Positions 10,519 through 18,268 of a stretch of 64,000 nucleotides of DNA are shown piece after piece. The stretch is from Thauera sp. K11 (lineage in GTDB: Bacteria; Pseudomonadota; Gammaproteobacteria; Burkholderiales; Rhodocyclaceae), in NCBI RefSeq assembly GCF_002354895.1, contig NZ_CP023439.1, positions 372,001-436,000 on the forward strand. Direction: 5' to 3'. How positions within the stretch are numbered: position 1 is the stretch's first letter; the number at the start of each line of letters is the position of its first letter. The translations under genes were made by a program, and so were the position numbers. The notes beneath the pieces were generated by a model. The model ran no database searches, had not been told where the DNA came from, and saw only the letters and a list, made by a program, of their open reading frames with translations.

Positions 10519-10626
10519 TGCCGGCCTGCCGTGCCGGTGGCGCGGCGGGATGGCGCAAGGGCGGTTTCGGGGGCAGGCGCGGATCGGGCGCCTCGCCGTG
10601 CGCAGGCAGGGTGATGCACCGGCCGG

Positions 10627-11898
10627 TCATGCCGGCAGCGATTCGCCCTGCTTCCCGCCGTCCTGCCCTGCCGCCGGCTGCAGGTGCGGAAACGCATCCG
10701 TCCGCGCCAGCAGCGGAAACAGCTTCATCCAGATGCCGCCCACGGCCAGCGTCGCCGCGCCGCCGAATATCACCGCCGGCACCAGCCCGAGCAGACGGGC
10801 GGCCACGCCCGACTCGAAGTCGCCGAGCTGGTTCGAGGCGCCGATGAACACCGAATTCACCGCGCTGACCCGCCCCCGGATCTCGTCCGGCGTTTCGTGC
10901 TGCACCAGGATCTGGCGCACATAGACGCTGACCATGTCGCCCGCGCCACCCACGGCGAGCAGCGCGATCGACAGCGGCAGGCTGGCCGACAGGCCGAAGA
11001 GCGCCATCGACGCGCCGAACACCGCCACGCCACCGAACATCCAGCGCCCCACGTGGCGGCGGATCGGCCGCCACACCAGCGCCGCTGCGGCGAATGCCGC
11101 ACCCACGGCCGGCGCCGCGCGCAGCAGGCCCAGCCCGGCGGCGTCCACCTGCAGCACGTCGCGCGCCATCGCCGGCATCAGGGCCACCGCACTGCCGAAC
11201 AGCACCGCGAACAGATCGAGCGAGATCGCCCCCAGCACGATCGGGCGCGAGAACACGAAGCGCAGCCCCTCGAACACCGCGCCGGCATCGCGTCCGTCCG
11301 CCTGCCCGGCGGCATGGCGCCTGCCGCTGCGCACCCGGCTCATCAACAGCACCGCGCTGGCGAACAAGGTCGTCGACGCAACGTAGACCGCATGCGGCCC
11401 GCCCAGATAGACCACGCCGCCAAGCACCGGACCGGCGATCACCGCGACGTGGAAGGACGACGAATGTAGCGCCAGCGCCTGGGCGAACCGCGGCGCCGAC
11501 ACCAGGTTGATCAGCACCGCCTGGCTTGCCGGCATCATGAAGGCCCGGGCACAGCCGAGCAGGACCAGCACGGCGTAGATCAGGCCCACCTCGTGCAGGC
11601 CGGCGAGCGTGATGCCCAGGAGAGCGGCCGAGGCCAGGCCCTGCAGCGCAAAACAGAAGGTGATGATGCGGCTGCGCTCCTTGCGGTCGGCGACCTGCCC
11701 CGCCGGCAGGATCAACACCACGAAGGGCGCGAACTGCGCCAGCCCGACCAGGCCGAGCGCGAGCAGGTCGCCGGTCAGTTCATAAACCTGCATCCCCACC
11801 GCGACGCTGACCATCTCGGCTGCCAGCGTGACCAGGATCTTCGCGCTCAGGAAGAACAGGAAATCCCGCTCCTGCAATACCGCCAGCCGCTCCCGCAT
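10627..11898 (-). CDS. MFS transporter, enterobactin-exporter-like (MFS_3 type)
   Basis: A 423-residue inner-membrane protein with about 12 predicted helices. I start it at the ATG at 11898 (MRERLAVLQERDFLFFLSAK), because the upstream extension to 11997 is Pro/Arg-rich and unlike family N-termini; a GAGAG sequence lies about 12 nt upstream. The inter-helix 2-3 signature is visible in PAGQVADRKERSR, and FMMPASQAVLINLV and ETPDEIRGRVSAVNSVF match the EntS/MFS_3 group of small-molecule exporters. No biosynthetic genes lie next to it, so substrate is unknown. It converges with the epimerase gene. Confidence 0.88.
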   Translation of the reverse strand: MRERLAVLQERDFLFFLSAKILVTLAAEMVSVAVGMQVYELTGDLLALGLVGLAQFAPFVVLILPAGQVADRKERSRIITFCFALQGLASAALLGITLAGLHEVGLIYAVLVLLGCARAFMMPASQAVLINLVSAPRFAQALALHSSSFHVAVIAGPVLGGVVYLGGPHAVYVASTTLFASAVLLMSRVRSGRRHAAGQADGRDAGAVFEGLRFVFSRPIVLGAISLDLFAVLFGSAVALMPAMARDVLQVDAAGLGLLRAAPAVGAAFAAAALVWRPIRRHVGRWMFGGVAVFGASMALFGLSASLPLSIALLAVGGAGDMVSVYVRQILVQHETPDEIRGRVSAVNSVFIGASNQLGDFESGVAARLLGLVPAVIFGGAATLAVGGIWMKLFPLLARTDAFPHLQPAAGQDGGKQGESLPA

Positions 11899-12031
11899 GC
11901 TCAATTCGGTTCTCTCGCAAGTTGTCGCGTCCGCCCGGCCGTATCCGCCGGCCCCTGGCTGACGCCTGGAGGGGGATTCTGCCGGATCGGGCCGCATGCG
12001 TGGGTTCGGGCGTGGGCACGGACCGGATATC

Positions 12032-12075
12032 CAGACATGGATGTCTGCTAGACTTAGTCCATTGATTTAGTCCAT
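12032..12075. promoter_or_regulatory. Inverted and direct repeats before the Phd/PIN pair (probable operator)
   Basis: A perfect 7-bp inverted repeat, CAGACAT-GG-ATGTCTG (12032-12047), is followed by two direct copies of TTAGTCCAT at 12054-12062 and 12067-12075, 13 bp apart. They end 11 bases before the antitoxin ATG. Phd/YefM antitoxins commonly repress their own operon by binding palindromes in this position, so an autoregulatory operator is likely. The A+T content of this patch also stands out from its surroundings. Confidence 0.5.
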
Positions 12076-12086
12076 GAGGCGGTGCG

Positions 12087-12317
12087 ATGACGCTCATCGT
12101 CAATGTCCACGAAGCGAAGACCCAGTTCTCGCGTCTGCTGGAGCAGGCGCACGCTGGGCAGGAGATCATTCTCGCCAAGGCGGGCAAGCCGTATGCGCGC
12201 TTGATGCCGCTTGCCCAGCCTGCTTCGCGAAGACAGCCGGGACGGCTCGCCGGGCGGATCGGCGACGAGTTCTTCGAACCGCTTCCCGACGAAGAGCTGG
12301 ACGCCTGGGAGCGGTGA
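12087..12317 (+). CDS. Type II antitoxin, Phd/YefM family
   Basis: A 76-residue protein whose first 55 residues match the Phd/YefM DNA-binding antitoxin fold: TLIVNVHEAKTQFSRLLEQA, then EIILAKAGKPYARLMPL. The remaining C-terminal tail is acidic (GDEFFEPLPDEELDAWER) and is the kind of segment that wraps around and inhibits the toxin. It overlaps the PIN-domain toxin gene by one base (TGATG), consistent with translational coupling. Repeats directly upstream suggest autoregulation. Family assignment is strong. Confidence 0.92.
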   Translation: MTLIVNVHEAKTQFSRLLEQAHAGQEIILAKAGKPYARLMPLAQPASRRQPGRLAGRIGDEFFEPLPDEELDAWER

Positions 12318-12703
12318 TGCGGCTGCTGCTCGATACCCACGCCCTGCTGTGGTGGTTCACCGACGATCCGCGGCTGCCCGGCTCCGCACGGGACGCGATT
12401 GCCGACGAGCGCAACCTCATCCTGGTCAGCGCAGCCAGCGCCTGGGAAATCGCGACCAAGCACCGGCTCGGGAAGCTCGCCGAGGCCGCCGGGGCAGTCA
12501 GCCGCTTCGGCGAACTCGTTGCCGCCGACGGATTCACCCATCTGCCGATGACGCATTTCCACTGCATCCGGGCGGGCAGCTACGAGGTTGCGCATCGGGA
12601 TCCGTTCGACCGGATGCTGGCGGCGCAAAGCGAACTCGAGTCCGCCACGCTGGTGACCCGGGACCCCGCATTCGCATGCTTCGGAACCCGCACCTTCTGG
12701 TGA
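12317..12703 (+). CDS. PIN-domain ribonuclease toxin (VapC-like)
   Basis: A 128-residue PIN-domain protein, expected to be a Mg-dependent RNase that blocks translation when free of antitoxin. Acidic active-site residues are visible: Asp6 (LLLDTHALLWW), Glu in SAASAWEIATKHRLGK, Asp in HRDPFDRML and Asp in TLVTRDPAF. The arrangement LDTHALLWW with HRDPFDR is typical of the Phd-coupled PIN subgroup. It starts at the ATG overlapping the antitoxin stop. No damage is evident, so the pair appears functional. It marks the start of the accessory region that runs to ~17.5 kb. Confidence 0.93.
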   Translation: MRLLLDTHALLWWFTDDPRLPGSARDAIADERNLILVSAASAWEIATKHRLGKLAEAAGAVSRFGELVAADGFTHLPMTHFHCIRAGSYEVAHRDPFDRMLAAQSELESATLVTRDPAFACFGTRTFW

Positions 12704-12902
12704 GGGATGAGTGGAGTCCGGGGCCCGGTACGGCCCGGGACCGATGCACGGGGACGCATCTGTCGTCGAGGCTGGCAAGGATTGTCAATCGGCTGGATCG
12801 AATGTCAATTGTGGACAGGCGCTTGTCCCGATCTGCCAGAAGTTCGGCGTTCTGCCGCCGCTCAATGTGACATCTGTCACGGATCGGGTGGGTCGAGAGA
12901 CC

Positions 12903-12918
12903 TGGCACGCCTTCTGCT
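12903..12918 (+). promoter_or_regulatory. Sigma-54 (-24/-12) promoter for the pilin cluster
   Basis: The sequence TGGCACGCCTTCTGCT matches the sigma-54 consensus TGGCACG-N4-TTGCW at every conserved position except one (C for T before TGC), with the invariant GG and GC exactly 12 bp apart. It lies 63 bp upstream of the short pilin ATG at 12981, giving a predicted start near 12930. Type IV pilin genes are classically driven by sigma-54 with PilS/PilR, so the position supports the call. No pilS/pilR genes are in the window. Confidence 0.72.
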
Positions 12919-12980
12919 TATTGTTGGTCAAGCGTCGGGATTGATTGCCGGCGCCCGGTCAATCCTGTCGGAGACTTCAA

Positions 12981-13163
12981 ATGATGAAGAAAATGCAGAA
13001 AGGCTTCACCCTGATCGAGCTGATGATCGTCGTGGCGATCATCGGCATCCTGGCGGCGATCGCGATCCCGCAATTCAACGAGTATCGTGCCAAGGCAAAC
13101 GATTCGTCGGCCCAGGCAGATGTCAAGAATGGCCTTACCGTGCTCACCGCTGCGCAGAAATAA
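12981..13163 (+). CDS. Very short type IV pilin (PilA-N-like)
   Basis: A 60-residue prepilin. The leader MMKKMQKG ends in the Gly-Phe cleavage site, and the mature protein begins [20 protein letters not shown] with Glu5, the hallmark of type IVa pilins. The mature chain is only 52 residues: the N-terminal helix is complete but the globular C-terminal head of normal pilins is absent. The stop codon is followed immediately by a good ribosome site (AAGGAG) for the next gene, so this is a natural short form rather than an obvious truncation. Aromatic residues F1, F24 and Y27 coincide with those of the short Geobacter pilin, but no aromatics occur after residue 27. A GTC-GGAG sequence precedes the ATG. 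Driven by the sigma-54 promoter at 12903. Confidence 0.9.
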
Positions 13164-13174
13164 GGAGAACGAAG

Positions 13175-13612
13175 ATGAAGAAGCTTATTCCCTTGTTCAT
13201 GATGATTGCTGGCGTCGGGGCTTCGTTCGGTGCTTCCGCTCAAACGGCTCTCCCGCCTAATGGTGGTCCGGTTACCACCACCGCATGCACGGTCCTGTCG
13301 GAACAGGTTACGCTGAACCTGTCGAAGGGTGTCCATGGCGCCTTCAACTGCGACGAGGCGACCAATGCAATCAAGGTTGCTACTTGTCACGAAGCGGGAA
13401 GTCGCAAGCCGACGACGGTGAACTGCGTTGCGCAAGGTTCTGAGCCGGATATCACCTATACTCCGGCGGGATGCGCGGCAGGTGTGGCGAGCGTCGAGAT
13501 CAGTGATTACCGTGCATTTACCGCCAATAGCCGTGGCGGCGGTGTCGGTACGGCTCAACTCGGTGGGGCGTGCACGGACAGCAGTCTCAGCGGACTTGGC
13601 GGCTTCTGGTAA
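13175..13612 (+). CDS. Secreted six-cysteine protein, likely partner of the short pilin (PilA-C/Spc-like position)
   Basis: A 145-residue exported protein starting 11 bases after the pilin stop, with a strong AAGGAG site. The signal peptide is clear, with cleavage near GASAQT; the mature ~122 residues hold six cysteines (three possible disulfides) and a segment VTLNLSKGVHGAF followed by a His/Gly/Ser-containing stretch. I do not recognise a named domain. In Geobacter the headless pilin PilA-N is followed by a separate secreted partner (PilA-C, also called Spc), and position, size and the LSKxV-type segment fit that idea; this is inference by context. Codon use is less GC-biased than the surrounding genome. 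Confidence 0.72.
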   Translation: MKKLIPLFMMIAGVGASFGASAQTALPPNGGPVTTTACTVLSEQVTLNLSKGVHGAFNCDEATNAIKVATCHEAGSRKPTTVNCVAQGSEPDITYTPAGCAAGVASVEISDYRAFTANSRGGGVGTAQLGGACTDSSLSGLGGFW

Positions 13613-13667
13613 TCCCGGGGCATTCATGAAGCACGCACTATAGAAAGTGCAAGCTTTCATTGAAGTC

Positions 13668-13699
13668 AAAGCGGCAGGAGCGTAATGCTCTGCCGCTTT
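13668..13699 (+). terminator. Stem-loop between pilin pair and ABC genes
   Basis: Arms AAAGCGGCAGGAGC (13668-13681) and GCTCTGCCGCTTT (13687-13699) pair with a single-base bulge around a five-base loop (GTAAT). The 3' arm ends in TTT but is not followed by a long T run, so termination would be partial. Placement 55 bases after the secreted-protein stop suggests attenuation that keeps pilin transcripts abundant and the downstream ABC transporter low. The rest of the 204-base gap (13613-13816) shows nothing else I recognise. Confidence 0.5.
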
Positions 13700-13816
13700 G
13701 AGCATGTGGAAACGTTGAATCGTTCTTTCTGAACTCCATTGACGGGATCGATTCTCGACGCCGATTGCTCGCAACGCAACAGGGAAAGTGTTTGCGAGGC
13801 ATATTTGGAAGATTGA

Positions 13817-14695
13817 GTGATACACCCTCAATCAATTGATGATGTCGATGCTGGCTTTACTCCTTCAATTCGCAGCGACGCGAGAATGATCCTATCCCCG
13901 GATTTCTCTACTGCAGTGCGCCTTGCTCTGCGCACTCGTTTTCTATTTACTTCCTTCTGGCTGGTCATTGCGGTGATCGGAACTGCATGGCTAGGGGCAC
14001 AATTCAGTGCCCGTCAACCTGCGACGGTAGCTCTGGATGTCGGTCTCTCGGTGATCCGCGTGTTGCTTCCATTGATGGGAGTGCTGCTGCTGCAGGAGCT
14101 GATTTCACGGGAGTTCGATCGCCGACTGTTTTTGGTCTCGCTTACCTATCCTCGGCCGCGCTACCGATTCTTGATCGATAGGCTGCTTGCCACGCTTGCC
14201 CTAGTAGGTTTCTTGCTTCTTGTGCTTGCCGTAGCGTTAGGCGGTACCGTTGCTCTCCTTGGCAAGGAATACGTGCAGGCAACTCCTGTGGCGCTCGGAG
14301 TGCCTTATCTCGTCACGCTGTGTTTCATGGCAGTCGATGTATTTGTGGTGTTGGCAATGGGGGTATTGCTGGCCGTCGTCGCGTCTACGCCTAACTTCGT
14401 GCTTATCGGTGCGATGGGTTTCATGATAATAGCGCGGTCTTTCTCGTCGATGGTGACCCTGCTGCAGCGAGAATCGTGGCTGATGGAGAATGCTCACCAA
14501 TATCAGTCATCGCTGGACCTTTTGACCTATGTCGTTCCGGACTTGGCTTCCCTGGATGTCCGAATGATTGCGTTGTACGGGAAGATGGATCTGTTGCCGG
14601 CGAATTGGCCATGGCAATTTTTTACGGCTTTATCGTATGGCGTTGCCTTGGTAGCATTCGCCGTATGGGCGTTGAAGCGTAGGCGTTTTTCATGA
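13817..14695 (+). CDS. ABC-2-type permease of the pilin island (PilI-like)
   Basis: A 292-residue inner-membrane protein with about six hydrophobic helices (for example FLFTSFWLVIAVIGTAWLG, LALVGFLLLVLAVALGGTV, YLVTLCFMAVDVFVVLAMG, and a C-terminal helix before the basic end ALKRRRFS). The architecture suits an ABC-2 exporter subunit. I use the GTG at 13817, which has GGAAG six bases upstream; the ATG at 13886 (MILSPDFSTAV) is a reasonable alternative. It overlaps the next gene by ATGA and its partner ATPase is at 15543. In Myxococcus the ABC-related genes pilGHI lie directly after pilA and are needed for pilus assembly; this gene could be the PilI counterpart, which is inference. Base composition is clearly lower in GC than flanking genes. 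Confidence 0.75.
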   Translation: MIHPQSIDDVDAGFTPSIRSDARMILSPDFSTAVRLALRTRFLFTSFWLVIAVIGTAWLGAQFSARQPATVALDVGLSVIRVLLPLMGVLLLQELISREFDRRLFLVSLTYPRPRYRFLIDRLLATLALVGFLLLVLAVALGGTVALLGKEYVQATPVALGVPYLVTLCFMAVDVFVVLAMGVLLAVVASTPNFVLIGAMGFMIIARSFSSMVTLLQRESWLMENAHQYQSSLDLLTYVVPDLASLDVRMIALYGKMDLLPANWPWQFFTALSYGVALVAFAVWALKRRRFS

Positions 14696-15546
14696 GCAGT
14701 GACGGCCGGGTCAGATCGCTAGCAACTGCACTGGGGGCTGCTTCCCTTTTCTTGTTATTGGTGTTAAACCAGCCGCCGCGTGATAATTCTGCGAAACTGG
14801 TTCTGACAGATCGTGTGGTTGTGTCGGCTCCCATACAGTTGCTGCTTGCGGGGGGTGATCGTTTTCTAGCAGCGAATTTCGAGGCGTTTCGAGCGACGTC
14901 AACATTGAGCGGCGAAACGGCGGCGTTGATGGATGACGTTTCCTTCCGCATCCGCGCGCATCGGGTGGTAGCCCAGCTTAATCCGTGCCACGAAGATAAT
15001 TACTATCTCGCAAACGGAATGCTTTCCTGGGGGGGCGCGCCGGACGATGCCATCTATATTCTACGCCGTGCGACAGAATGTCGCATCTGGGACGAAACCC
15101 CGGCTTTTTTTTATGGATTCAATCTCTGGTTCTTTCGTCGGGATGTGGAGGGCGGACGCAAGGCTCTGGAGTTGGCTGCGGAACGGACAGTAGCCAATGC
15201 GGCGATTTTTCGCCGAATGGCGGTGATGATCGAAGCCGAGACATATCGGGATGAGCGTGCTGCTTTGCGGTTTCTTGAACATGAGCGTGATCAAGCGGCC
15301 GATGAGAAGCTTAAGGAGATGCTGGATCGTCGGGTGCAGCGATTGGCGGGATTGATTGGTTTGCGGGATGCCCAGGCTCGCTATGAAGCTAAAATGGGGC
15401 GCAGGCTTGCTGCTCCGGTTACCTTGGTGGAAGAAGGTTTTCTCTCCGATTTTCCAAAGGACCCCCTTGGTTTGGGCTACGAGTTTGTTGATGGTGAGTT
15501 TCGTTTGCGCAGTCTGAAAATTCCGGGAATGGAAGACGCAAAATGA
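14692..15546 (+). CDS. Membrane-anchored TPR-like protein of the pilin island (PilG-like position)
   Basis: A 284-residue protein of unknown function. It begins with a single membrane-spanning segment (LATALGAASLFLLLVLNQPP), so the bulk is probably periplasmic. The middle contains helical pairs resembling degenerate TPR repeats (NYYLANGMLSWGGAPDDAIYILRRAT; FYGFNLWFFRRDVEGGRKAL; RRMAVMIEAETY). The C-terminal part (ARYEAKMGRRLAAPVTLVEE through PKDPLGLGYEF) is a short module I have seen at the end of TPR proteins linked to pili or secretion. It overlaps both neighbours by four bases and therefore belongs to the permease-ATPase unit. It may be an accessory subunit analogous to Myxococcus PilG. 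Confidence 0.68.
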   Translation: MSSDGRVRSLATALGAASLFLLLVLNQPPRDNSAKLVLTDRVVVSAPIQLLLAGGDRFLAANFEAFRATSTLSGETAALMDDVSFRIRAHRVVAQLNPCHEDNYYLANGMLSWGGAPDDAIYILRRATECRIWDETPAFFYGFNLWFFRRDVEGGRKALELAAERTVANAAIFRRMAVMIEAETYRDERAALRFLEHERDQAADEKLKEMLDRRVQRLAGLIGLRDAQARYEAKMGRRLAAPVTLVEEGFLSDFPKDPLGLGYEFVDGEFRLRSLKIPGMEDAK

Positions 15547-16496
15547 GTTTGGCGCTAGAGTTCAGCGCGGTGAGCAAAGTTTTTCGTTCGCGGGCGCGCT
15601 CCGTGCAGGCGTTGCAGGACGTCAGCTTCGAGGTGGACGAGGGCGAGGTGTTCGGCTTTGTCGGCCCGAACGGTGCCGGCAAGTCCACCACGATCAAGAT
15701 CATGCTGGATGTCATTGACGACTATCAGGGCGAGGTGCGCCTTTACGGGCTTTCGGCACGTGAGGCAGCATCGCGAAAAGGGGTGGCCTACGTTCCGGAG
15801 TCTCCGGCGCTGTATGAACAGTTTACCCCGCTTGAGATTCTGCGCATGGCACTGGACATGTACGGTATCCGTCGCATCGATGCCGATATCTGGTGTCGAC
15901 AATGGTTGGACCGTTTCTCCGTTGGCCATGTCGCGGACCGTCGTATGCGCCTGTTGTCGAAAGGCACGGCGCAGCGGGTCGCGCTGGCCCATGCCCTGGT
16001 CGTCAGTCCGCGCCTGCTCGTGCTCGACGAGCCGCTATCCGGCCTGGACCCGGTTGGGCGCAAGGATGTCGTCGATATCCTTTCCGAGTACAAGCGCGAC
16101 GGGGGGGCGATTTTCTTTACATCCCATGTATTGCACGACGTGGAACGTATCGCCGATCGATTCGGCTTCATCCATCAAGGGCAGCTCATCACGACCCGCT
16201 CGCCGCGCGATCTGGTGGCAGACCGGGCCGATCGGTTCATCGTGCGCTACCAGGCAGGGGAGGGATTCGCGGCGGCGGGCGAGGCCATTCGGACGGGCGA
16301 ATTCGAGCACGAACTGGCACAGACGGAACTGCCTGATTTCATTTCAGGGCTGAACGCCTCGGGCGGGCGCATCGTTACGCTGAAACCGGCAGTCTCGCTC
16401 GAAACGATGTTCTTCAAGATATTGGCCGAGGGCGGGCTGCCACGGCCTGCGGAAACCGCTGGAACCCTGAGGCCGAGCGGCTTGGATTGCGGGTGA
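15543..16496 (+). CDS. ABC transporter ATP-binding protein of the pilin island (PilH-like)
   Basis: A 317-residue ATPase subunit. Walker A (GPNGAGKSTTIKIM, residues ~40-53), a signature of the LSKG form (LLSKGTAQRVALAHAL), Walker B (LLVLDEPLSGLDP) and the switch His (FFTSHVLHDVERI) are all intact. The LSKG variant is common in ABC-2 exporters. About 90 C-terminal residues after the nucleotide-binding domain form an accessory region. It pairs with the permease at 13817; the intervening TPR-like gene overlaps both. GC content rises again along this gene, so the foreign-looking patch fades here. The substrate might be the secreted partner protein or a pilus-assembly component, unproven. Confidence 0.88.
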   Translation: MSLALEFSAVSKVFRSRARSVQALQDVSFEVDEGEVFGFVGPNGAGKSTTIKIMLDVIDDYQGEVRLYGLSAREAASRKGVAYVPESPALYEQFTPLEILRMALDMYGIRRIDADIWCRQWLDRFSVGHVADRRMRLLSKGTAQRVALAHALVVSPRLLVLDEPLSGLDPVGRKDVVDILSEYKRDGGAIFFTSHVLHDVERIADRFGFIHQGQLITTRSPRDLVADRADRFIVRYQAGEGFAAAGEAIRTGEFEHELAQTELPDFISGLNASGGRIVTLKPAVSLETMFFKILAEGGLPRPAETAGTLRPSGLDCG

Positions 16497-16752
16497 TTCG
16501 GCGATCCGGTGGATGTGCCGGGACGTGCATGAAAAATTCCGCGTGCCTTCATGTTCGGACATGGGCACGGGCAAGAAGCTCTTCTCAGGATAGTTCGATT
16601 GCCTGATGCTGCCTCTCTTCTTTTTCCCAACATCGGGATGAAGGGTTGCGATGGCAGGTCCCGCCGCCACGCTTTTCCCGGAACGGGCATGCAGCGCCGT
16701 CCGCGGTCCTGCTTCGTGCTGCTGCATAATCTGCAGGAAGAGAGGGTGCCGC

Positions 16753-17174
16753 GTGACGACACAAGACATCCGCTGGCAGCAACGTTTGGCAAATTACGAT
16801 CGCGCGCTTGGTCGCCTGACGGCGGCCGTCGAACTGTCGCATCAGCGTCCCTTGACGGATCTTGAGAAGCAGGGGTTGATCCAGGCGTTCGAGTTTACGC
16901 ACGAACTCGCATGGAACGTGATGAAAGACTACTTGGACTGGCAGGGCACGGGGTGGACATCACCGGATCGCGGGATGCCACGCGGGAGTCCTTCAGTCGG
17001 GGGCTCGTACAGGATGGCGAAGGCTGGATGGAGATGATCCGCAGCCGCAAGCAGACTTCCCATACCTACAACGAAGAAGTGGCCAACGAGATCGCGGGCC
17101 GCATCATCGGCACTTATCAGCCGCTGTTCGTGGCGTTTGCCGGGCGGATGCGCGCACTCGGTGAGCGCCGATGA
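16753..17174 (+). pseudogene. Frameshifted HI0074-family nucleotidyltransferase partner (HEPN-like)
   Basis: The first half is read from the GTG at 16753 (TTQDIRWQQRLANYDRALG to YLDWQGTG, ending near 16952). The second half continues in another frame (VDITGSRDATRESFSRGL through SHTYNEEVANEIAGRII) to a stop at 17174. The join falls in a run of four Gs at 16950-16953; restoring a single G would give one uninterrupted ~140-residue family protein. Family members partner with a minimal nucleotidyltransferase, which follows here with an ATGA overlap. Either the gene is inactivated or the base is a sequencing error. The 256 bases before it (16497-16752) hold nothing I recognise. Confidence 0.75.
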
Positions 17175-17497
17175 AGGCGCAGGGTGGGCTGCGCCACGGT
17201 TTGCCGGCGCACGCGATTGCGGAGATTCGTCAGGTCTTGGCGCGGCACCCGGGCGTGGTCCGGATCGTGCTCTATGGCTTGCGGGCGTTGGGGAACTACC
17301 GGACCGGGTCCGATATCGATCTGTGCCTCGATGCGCCAGCGTTGAGTCTGGCCGAATTGCTGGCCATCGGGACCGAGATCGACGAACTGCTGTTGCCGTG
17401 GAAGGTCGACCTCACGTTGCTGCAGAAGATCGACAACCCGGCGCTGCTCGAACACATCCGGCGCGTTGGCGTGTCGTTTGGCGACGGCGGGAACTGA
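17171..17497 (+). CDS. Minimal nucleotidyltransferase (MNT) domain protein with altered GS motif
   Basis: A 108-residue MNT-fold protein, partner of the preceding HI0074-like gene. The diagnostic region reads IVLYGLRALGNYRTGSDIDL: the two catalytic Asp of the DID motif are present and a third Asp is seen in KVDLTLL, but the first motif, normally GSRA, is GLRA. Loss of this Ser may weaken nucleotide binding. Together with the frameshift in its partner, the pair looks decayed. Related MNT/HEPN pairs act as toxin-antitoxin modules in which the MNT protein modifies the toxin; whether that applied here is unknown. Confidence 0.82.
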   Translation: MKAQGGLRHGLPAHAIAEIRQVLARHPGVVRIVLYGLRALGNYRTGSDIDLCLDAPALSLAELLAIGTEIDELLLPWKVDLTLLQKIDNPALLEHIRRVGVSFGDGGN

Positions 17498-17635
17498 GGC
17501 TCTCCGCTGCCCGGTCGCAATGGAAGACCGGATCGGACGCTCCGCCAAGCGCGCGTTTTCACGCTGCGCGGATCGTCCTGGTATGGCGTGTGCCGGATCG
17601 TGGCCGAATGGGCGAAGAAGCTACGGTGCGGGTAG

Positions 17636-18055
17636 TCAGGCGATCCGTTCCCACAGACAGCTTTCGTCTTCCAGTTGGTCGAGTTCCAGCCCCTTGAAGT
17701 CGCCGCGTGACACGATGCCGACGATTGCGTCGCCATCGACGATGGGGAGGTGGCGGTAGCCGCAGTCGGACATGCGGCGCAGGGCGTCGATGGCCGTTGC
17801 GTCCGGGGTGATCGTGTCGGGCCTGGCGGTCATGACGGCGGAGAGGGGCGTTGCCGCGGGTATCCGGCCTTCGGCGAGGGCGCGCACCGCGTCGCGGCCG
17901 GTGAAGATGCCGGCGAGCCTGCCGTCTTCGGTCACCAGTACCGCGCCGACGCGGCGTTCCCACATGCATTGGCAGGCGCGCTGGACGGTGGCGTCGGGCG
18001 GCAGCATCAGCGGGTCCTGGTGCTTGACGATGTAGGCGAGGCAGCGGTTGGTCAT
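17636..18055 (-). CDS. Tandem CBS-domain protein
   Basis: A 139-residue soluble protein made of two CBS domains (about residues 10-65 and 75-130), each ending in the usual GI/VxxRGD-like turn (LAGIFTGRDAVRAL and IVGIVSRGDFKG). CBS pairs bind adenine nucleotides and sense energy state. No enzymatic domain is attached, so it is probably a stand-alone regulator or stress protein. It is divergent from apaH across about 210 bases; that both deal with adenine nucleotides may be coincidence. Confidence 0.9.
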   Translation of the reverse strand: MTNRCLAYIVKHQDPLMLPPDATVQRACQCMWERRVGAVLVTEDGRLAGIFTGRDAVRALAEGRIPAATPLSAVMTARPDTITPDATAIDALRRMSDCGYRHLPIVDGDAIVGIVSRGDFKGLELDQLEDESCLWERIA

Positions 18056-18268
18056 GATGGGTGTCTCCCGGACGACGATGAATGGATGAATTCGATTTTC
18101 GCCCTATTTCAATATAGACGACGGCATCAGGGTTTTTCCGCCGCAGGCCCGGGCCGCAAACCCGCCGCGGACTGCGTTCCGGGGCTGCAATCCCTTTAGA
18201 ATGTTGCAGGTTTCCGGCCTCCGGCATCGTTGCCGGGGCCGTTCTTTCATCCTTTTGATGCGGCTTTC

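What the first reader, a model, noticed from the sequence alone, without database searches (positions are those of the whole stretch)
12903..16496. Split-pilin plus ABC-transporter island under a sigma-54 promoter
Seen: a sigma-54 consensus promoter, a headless 52-residue mature pilin, a secreted six-Cys protein 11 bases later, then permease, anchored TPR-like protein and ABC ATPase with ATGA overlaps, all in DNA visibly less GC-rich than the flanks. Known: Geobacter splits its pilin into PilA-N and a secreted partner; Myxococcus places the ABC-related pilGHI genes directly after pilA and needs them for pilus assembly. Inference: this combines both ideas in one compact, probably transferred cassette, in which the ABC complex may export or position the pilin partner. 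I do not know a described betaproteobacterial example.
Basis: partly seen in the sequence, partly recalled or inferred. Interest (0 to 1): 0.85.

Follow-up and report, generated by a model that had tools for sequence, protein, structure and literature searches.

The report
Two-piece pilin with its own transporter
A small, probably transferred gene cassette encodes a pilus fibre protein split into two separate pieces plus a dedicated three-part membrane machine, and the same set recurs in many unrelated bacteria, which suggests that the machine serves the pilus rather than some other cargo.

Summary
A near-consensus sigma-54 site, a 52-residue headless pilin, a secreted six-Cys protein (SEC), an ABC-2 permease (PERM), a membrane-anchored TPR protein and an ABC ATPase (ATP) lie in order at 12903-16496, in the AT-rich part of an extra 7.7-kb block absent from the same site in a relative. 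The linkage is not chance: of 92 distinct loci inspected around homologues of the TPR gene, 91 have a pilin beside the ABC genes and one is cut off by a contig end. SEC is very probably the detached head of a type IV pilin: the two best fold matches are Geobacter PilA-C, and profiles connect it to heads of full-length pilins encoded beside the same ABC trio elsewhere. So the cassette and split-pilin readings hold. Export of SEC by the ABC complex is unlikely, because SEC carries its own apparent signal peptide. A betaproteobacterial short-pilin operon (Azoarcus pilAB) is already published. Best mechanism (inferred): the ABC trio drives a periplasmic TPR chaperone that pairs or loads the pilin pieces, as PilGHI may do in Myxococcus; a glycan-export role is the main rival. 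In this strain pilB is interrupted by an insertion sequence, so pili may not be made.

The parts
12903..12917 (+). sigma-54 (-24/-12) promoter-like site, one mismatch
   Evidence: conserved at the same place in 34 of 40 loci with at most one mismatch
12981..13163 (+). headless type IV pilin, PilA-N type, 52 residues mature (start may also be 12984)
   Evidence: (best solved relatives: Geobacter geopilin domain 1, E 4e-17)
13175..13612 (+). SEC: secreted six-Cys partner, detached pilin head of PilA-C type
13666..13701 (+). strong RNA hairpin without a T run between SEC and the permease; possible attenuator or mRNA stabiliser
   Evidence: -29.7 kcal/mol, z -5.45
13817..14695 (+). PERM: ABC-2 type permease (homologue-supported start 13886)
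14692..15546 (+). TPR: protein with an N-terminal anchor helix and a TPR domain, motif LNPCHEDNYY; PilG-like
15543..16496 (+). ATP: ABC ATPase; PilH-like by position
10519..18229 (.). extra block between the epimerase and apaH-like genes, absent from that site in genome G1007; holds an MFS gene, Phd/PIN pair, the cassette, nucleotidyltransferase pair and CBS gene

Best explanation
The locus is a horizontally mobile major-pilin cassette. Under a sigma-54 promoter it makes a two-piece type IV pilin: a PilA-N-like helix (pilin) and a separately secreted, disulfide-bonded head (SEC, PilA-C-like). It also makes a dedicated PilGHI-like ABC complex: ATPase, ABC-2 permease and an anchored TPR protein that probably faces the periplasm. 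SHOWN here by computation: identity and fold of the parts, conservation of the set, its tie to pilins, the promoter, the extra block. INFERRED: SEC enters the periplasm by the Sec route and folds with disulfides; ATP hydrolysis by the ATPase changes the permease, which works the TPR domain as a periplasmic chaperone (mechanotransmission, not transport) that holds SEC and mates it with the membrane-held PilA-N helix before the pilus machine takes it up. The hairpin after SEC may let the pilin pieces be made in excess over the ABC genes.
Confidence: 0.6

Rival explanations
1. The ABC trio exports a glycan or lipid-linked sugar that decorates the pilin or makes a pilus-associated matrix, as proposed for Geobacter XapD; the pilin link is functional but the cargo is sugar.
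For: xapD (GSU1501) lies close to pilA-N/pilA-C and is described as an ATP-dependent EPS exporter (PMC5585712, PMC4974642, PMC10599522 passages). Relatives carry Wzy_C O-antigen ligase homologues (L114, L087) or TPR plus Glyco_transf_9-like proteins (L111, L125, L118, L114) inside the cassette, and a ligase-like gene occurs at L089 and 8 of the 16 other full-length-pilin loci.
Against: The window cassette itself has no glycan gene, and none showed up among the cassette genes of the 39 close loci, though their other ORFs were not family-scanned. In Myxococcus pilGHI deletion also abolishes EPS (PMC5544727), as loss of pili does, so an EPS phenotype need not mean EPS cargo.
Confidence: 0.22
2. 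The ABC complex exports SEC itself.
For: Adjacency of SEC and PERM in the 39 close loci.
Against: SEC and its homologues begin with an apparent Sec signal peptide (read from the sequence, no predictor run); full-length pilins, inserted by their own leader, sit beside the same trio at 17 loci, so the trio is not tied to a free secreted head.
Confidence: 0.05
3. In this strain the cassette is a cargo relict: acquired with toxin-antitoxin-like genes but without working pili.
For: pilB is split by an IS5-family transposase gene; the cassette sits between toxin-antitoxin-like modules; the same-genus genome G972 lacks it.
Against: All five ORFs are intact with conserved motifs; pilC, pilQ, pilT-type and minor pilin genes and a second assembly ATPase gene, TfpB, are present.
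Confidence: 0.3
4. Chance neighbourhood of a pilin and an unrelated ABC transporter.
For: ABC ATPase genes are common: 106 matches in this genome.
Against: 91 of 92 distinct loci keep the pilin, with one order (PERM-TPR-ATP) at all split-pilin loci where the three genes were found.
Confidence: 0.01

Closest known systems
Geobacter PilA-N / PilA-C (geopilin domains 1 and 2) type IV pilin, with xapD nearby
   Same: Helix-only pilin followed by a secreted head; pilin best matches PilA-N structures, SEC model best matches PilA-C structures; an ABC ATPase gene lies four locus tags on.
   Different: SEC has six Cys where the fetched G. metallireducens partners show none in the mature part; mature pilin 52 rather than 61 residues; xapD is described as an EPS exporter and its homology to ATP was not tested.
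Myxococcus xanthus pilA-pilG-pilH-pilI operon
   Same: Pilin gene plus ATPase, permease and accessory factor under the pilA promoter (PMC3546991 passages); bridge loci such as L089 have this order with TPR, ATP and PERM homologues.
   Different: Full-length pilin and order G-H-I there; split pilin and order PERM-TPR-ATP here.
Azoarcus sp. BH72 pilAB
   Same: Betaproteobacterial short prepilin, co-transcribed second gene, mapped sigma-54 promoter, needed for type IV pili (PMC3262810 passages).
   Different: The passages seen mention no ABC genes; homology of that PilB to SEC not tested.
ABC mechanotransmission systems such as NosDFY (recalled, not tested)
   Same: ATPase plus ABC-2 permease serving a periplasmic protein without an obvious cargo.
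   Different: Accessory protein is a TPR protein here; likeness is of working principle only.

Membership tests
Split type IV pilin (PilA-N/PilA-C) | Short pilin: type IV leader and N-terminal helix, about 50-61 residues mature, no head | tested here: met
Split type IV pilin (PilA-N/PilA-C) | Partner gene directly downstream encodes a secreted protein homologous to a pilin head | tested here: met
   against: mature-only PDB profile search empty and low pairwise hhalign probabilities
Split type IV pilin (PilA-N/PilA-C) | The two chains polymerise together into a pilus | not testable with these tools
   needs purified pili or cryo-EM
PilGHI-type pilin ABC complex | ABC ATPase, ABC-2 permease and accessory protein encoded next to pilA | tested here: met
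PilGHI-type pilin ABC complex | Sequence homology to Myxococcus PilG, PilH and PilI | not tested
   no Myxococcus sequences could be fetched; only an indirect bridge through L089-type loci
PilGHI-type pilin ABC complex | Needed for pilus assembly | not testable with these tools
   needs deletion mutants
XapD-type exopolysaccharide exporter | Encoded with polysaccharide or glycan synthesis genes | tested here: inconclusive
   none in the window cassette; present inside many distant relatives
Sigma-54/PilR-type pilin promoter | -24/-12 element upstream of the pilin | tested here: met
   the activator gene was not sought
Canonical T4aP major pilin locus | Pilin beside pilB and pilC | tested here: inconclusive
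   met at many relatives (pilC in 21 of 39 loci), not in this genome, where pilB-pilC are about 0.24 Mb away

The most novel reading that the evidence does not exclude
The ABC trio is not a transporter but an ATP-driven periplasmic pilin-assembly chaperone that is inherited with, and matched to, one pilin architecture: order PERM-TPR-ATP with split pilins, TPR-ATP-PERM or ATP-PERM-TPR with full-length pilins. Geobacter XapD would then be the PilH of its split pilin, its EPS and cytochrome-anchoring defects would be secondary to pilus loss, and PilGHI would be a widespread but overlooked subunit-loading module of type IV pili that moves between genomes with its pilin.
Probability: 0.35. Interest if true: 0.78.

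Novelty: new variant of a known kind. Interest (0 to 1): 0.62.

Why it matters
If right, Geobacter-style two-piece pilins are not a deltaproteobacterial oddity linked to electron transfer: the sampled loci put them in Thauera, Pseudomonas and Stutzerimonas, Deefgea, Lampropedia and Zetaproteobacteria, often beside pilB and pilC. It gives the poorly understood PilGHI/XapD-type ABC genes a common setting, offers easily grown strains in which to ask what an ABC complex does for a pilus, and provides natural split and full-length versions of the same pilin head for studying subunit assembly.

Tried and rejected
Rejected: chance linkage (linkage counts); export of SEC by the ABC complex (signal peptide). 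Plasmid transfer: no match to the TPR protein in the plasmid collection. Direct link to Myxococcus or Geobacter ABC proteins: the L089 TPR protein search (49 proteins) and the A1 profile search (411 proteins of 8,000 scored, 120 listed) gave no listed name from either; the named rows are all hypothetical proteins. A mature-only SEC profile against the PDB found nothing at E <= 10. The A1 profile gave nothing useful in the PDB by sequence. Paper searches for an earlier description (listings of an open-licence library, passages read in 13 papers) showed none for this ABC-bearing cassette in beta- or gammaproteobacteria; subscription papers are not held, so this is weak. A search for mechanotransmission papers gave listings only, so that analogy is recalled.

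Rows dropped or chosen: A1 used 26 of the 39 fetched TPR homologues plus the window; A5 used 36 of 40 mature SEC rows (four with a misplaced anchor Cys column dropped); A7 used 23 of 31 full-length heads; A9 used 29 of 31 partners. Neighbourhoods were fetched for all 7 non-own matching genomes, all 18, 20 of 56 (chosen by me, not at random) and 12 of 20 new ones. Four loci were counted once as duplicates because contig lengths agree (L083/L022, L174/L036, L206/L024, L208/L034). The control used 60 shuffles per pair after a larger run timed out. The Foldseek 'pdb' search itself was never accepted; only the VIA second look ran.
Full report
OBSERVATION. The five ORFs, the spacing, both ATGA overlaps, the sigma-54-like site and the low GC are in the sequence as described. 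The permease start is better placed at the ATG at 13886, where the homologues begin.

IS IT A UNIT? A scan of named genomes with the TPR protein gave 39 loci. In all 39 the same strand carries a short pilin, the permease and the TPR gene; the ATPase gene follows in 37 (not in the fetched stretch of L001, where a transposase-like ORF follows, nor L004). A SEC homologue was detected by blastp in 35; in the other four (L011, L024, L034, L035) an ORF beginning like a secreted protein sits at the same place. Titles name Thauera, Pseudomonas, Stutzerimonas, Deefgea, Lampropedia, Propionivibrio, Mariprofundus/Zetaproteobacteria and others. The first pilin is 52 residues mature in 39 of 39, and 7 of 39 loci carry a second short pilin.

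With the TPR profile, 8 of 274 genomes of the class, 19 of 300 of the order and 22 of 101 of the family match, the window's own genome included each time; with a divergent TPR protein (L089) 57 of 398 of the phylum match. Neighbourhoods were read for 7, 18, 12 and 20 of these. TPR and ATPase genes lie together in all 57 loci, and the permease was detected in 55 (not L173, L175). A pilin is in the fetched stretch of 55 of 57; the two misses are L113 (contig end) and L117, whose pilins appear when the stretch is extended (L222). Over all 96 loci, 92 after removing four duplicates, 91 have a pilin. At two of these the pilin is farther off (about 4 kb, L088 and L161).

TWO ARCHITECTURES. Loci with headless pilins have the order PERM-TPR-ATP wherever the three genes were found. 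Seventeen loci (L089 and 16 of the 20) have full-length pilins instead, with order TPR-ATP-PERM at 7, ATP-PERM-TPR at 8, and no permease detected at 2. L089 reads: two full-length pilins, a 542-aa membrane protein like O-antigen ligases by eye, TPR, ATP, PERM, the gene order published for Myxococcus pilA-pilG-pilH-pilI (PMC3546991, passages) apart from the extra gene. The TPR proteins of the two architectures are homologous (hhalign 98.9%, E 1.7e-17).

PROMOTER AND PLACE. The -24/-12 site is conserved: 7 loci exact, 27 with one mismatch, 5 with two and 1 with four, of 40, against 0.7% with at most one mismatch in 1,922 random windows. In Pseudomonas/Stutzerimonas-type loci the cassette often lies beside pilB and pilC (pilC in 21 of 39, pilB-like in 24 of 39), so there it is probably the main pilin locus. 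In the window's genome it is elsewhere: between an epimerase gene and an apaH-like gene that are 43 bases apart in family member G1007, whose own cassette lies at 4.45 Mb. The intervening 7.7 kb of the window also holds an MFS gene, a Phd/PIN pair, a nucleotidyltransferase pair and a CBS gene. The same-genus genome G972 has no TPR homologue. Low GC is strong here but not universal: PERM+TPR are below their flanks in 26 of 37 loci, by more than 5 points in 12.

MECHANISM. The TPR protein is modelled with confidence as one N-terminal helix plus a TPR domain (structural matches dominated by TPR proteins). SEC has its own apparent signal peptide, and pilins have their own leader, so a Sec-independent exporter is not needed. 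I therefore favour a non-transporting ABC machine whose TPR domain handles pilin pieces in the periplasm. [quoted passage not shown] The rival is a glycan exporter: Geobacter xapD (GSU1501) near pilA-N/C is described as an EPS exporter, and many distant cassettes contain glycan-transfer genes between PERM and TPR. Of eight such ORFs scanned, two have Wzy_C, four have TPR plus Glyco_transf_9-like domains and two match nothing; six further ORFs of about 1,150-1,230 aa look alike by eye only.

THIS STRAIN. The genome has pilC, pilQ, pilT-type genes, a minor-pilin cluster and TfpB, but pilB is interrupted by an IS5-family transposase gene. I saw no other obvious major pilin among its ten N_methyl hits, but did not exclude one. 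The strain may therefore be non-piliated, or rely on TfpB; I only describe this.

NOVELTY. The pieces are known separately (Geobacter split pilin, Myxococcus PilGHI, Azoarcus short pilin). What appears new is that a split pilin with its own ABC trio is a conserved, patchily distributed cassette across beta-, gamma- and zetaproteobacteria, and that the trio goes with both split and full-length versions of one pilin-head family. My paper searches found no description of that, within the limits stated.

Noticed in passing
L068:2952-6056 (G000:C1, about 629.9-633.1 kb): pilB of the window's genome is split by an IS5-family transposase gene (L068:3451-4536); the two pieces match TIGR02538 positions 1-430 and 432-563. 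A second assembly ATPase gene, TfpB, is present at C1:4775313.
   Followed up: partly
window 12087-12703: Phd/YefM antitoxin and PIN-domain toxin pair directly upstream of the promoter. By eye, similar small toxin-antitoxin-like genes sit inside or beside the cassette in L002, L003 and L086.
   Followed up: partly
window 16651-17497: Nucleotidyltransferase pair downstream: the NTase_sub_bind gene lies in two overlapping frames, each matching a different half of PF08780, so it looks frameshifted; an intact-looking nucleotidyltransferase follows.
   Followed up: partly
L108-L118, L124, L125, L087: Distant relatives carry an extra gene inside the cassette: TPR plus Glyco_transf_9-like proteins, Wzy_C ligase homologues, or 629-662-aa membrane proteins with no Pfam match.
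   Followed up: partly
L005, L013, L018, L019, L027, L028, L038: A second headless pilin follows SEC; two SEC genes in tandem occur in L001 and L022.
   Followed up: no
L001:6940-9205: Transposase-like ORFs directly after the TPR gene, with no ATPase gene in the fetched stretch.
   Followed up: no
L123:7671-9432: Near-duplicate tandem pilin-partner units in one cassette, one partner partly masked by N.
   Followed up: no
window 13666-13701: Strong hairpin without a T run between SEC and PERM (z -5.45), possibly setting the pilin to ABC expression ratio.
   Followed up: partly
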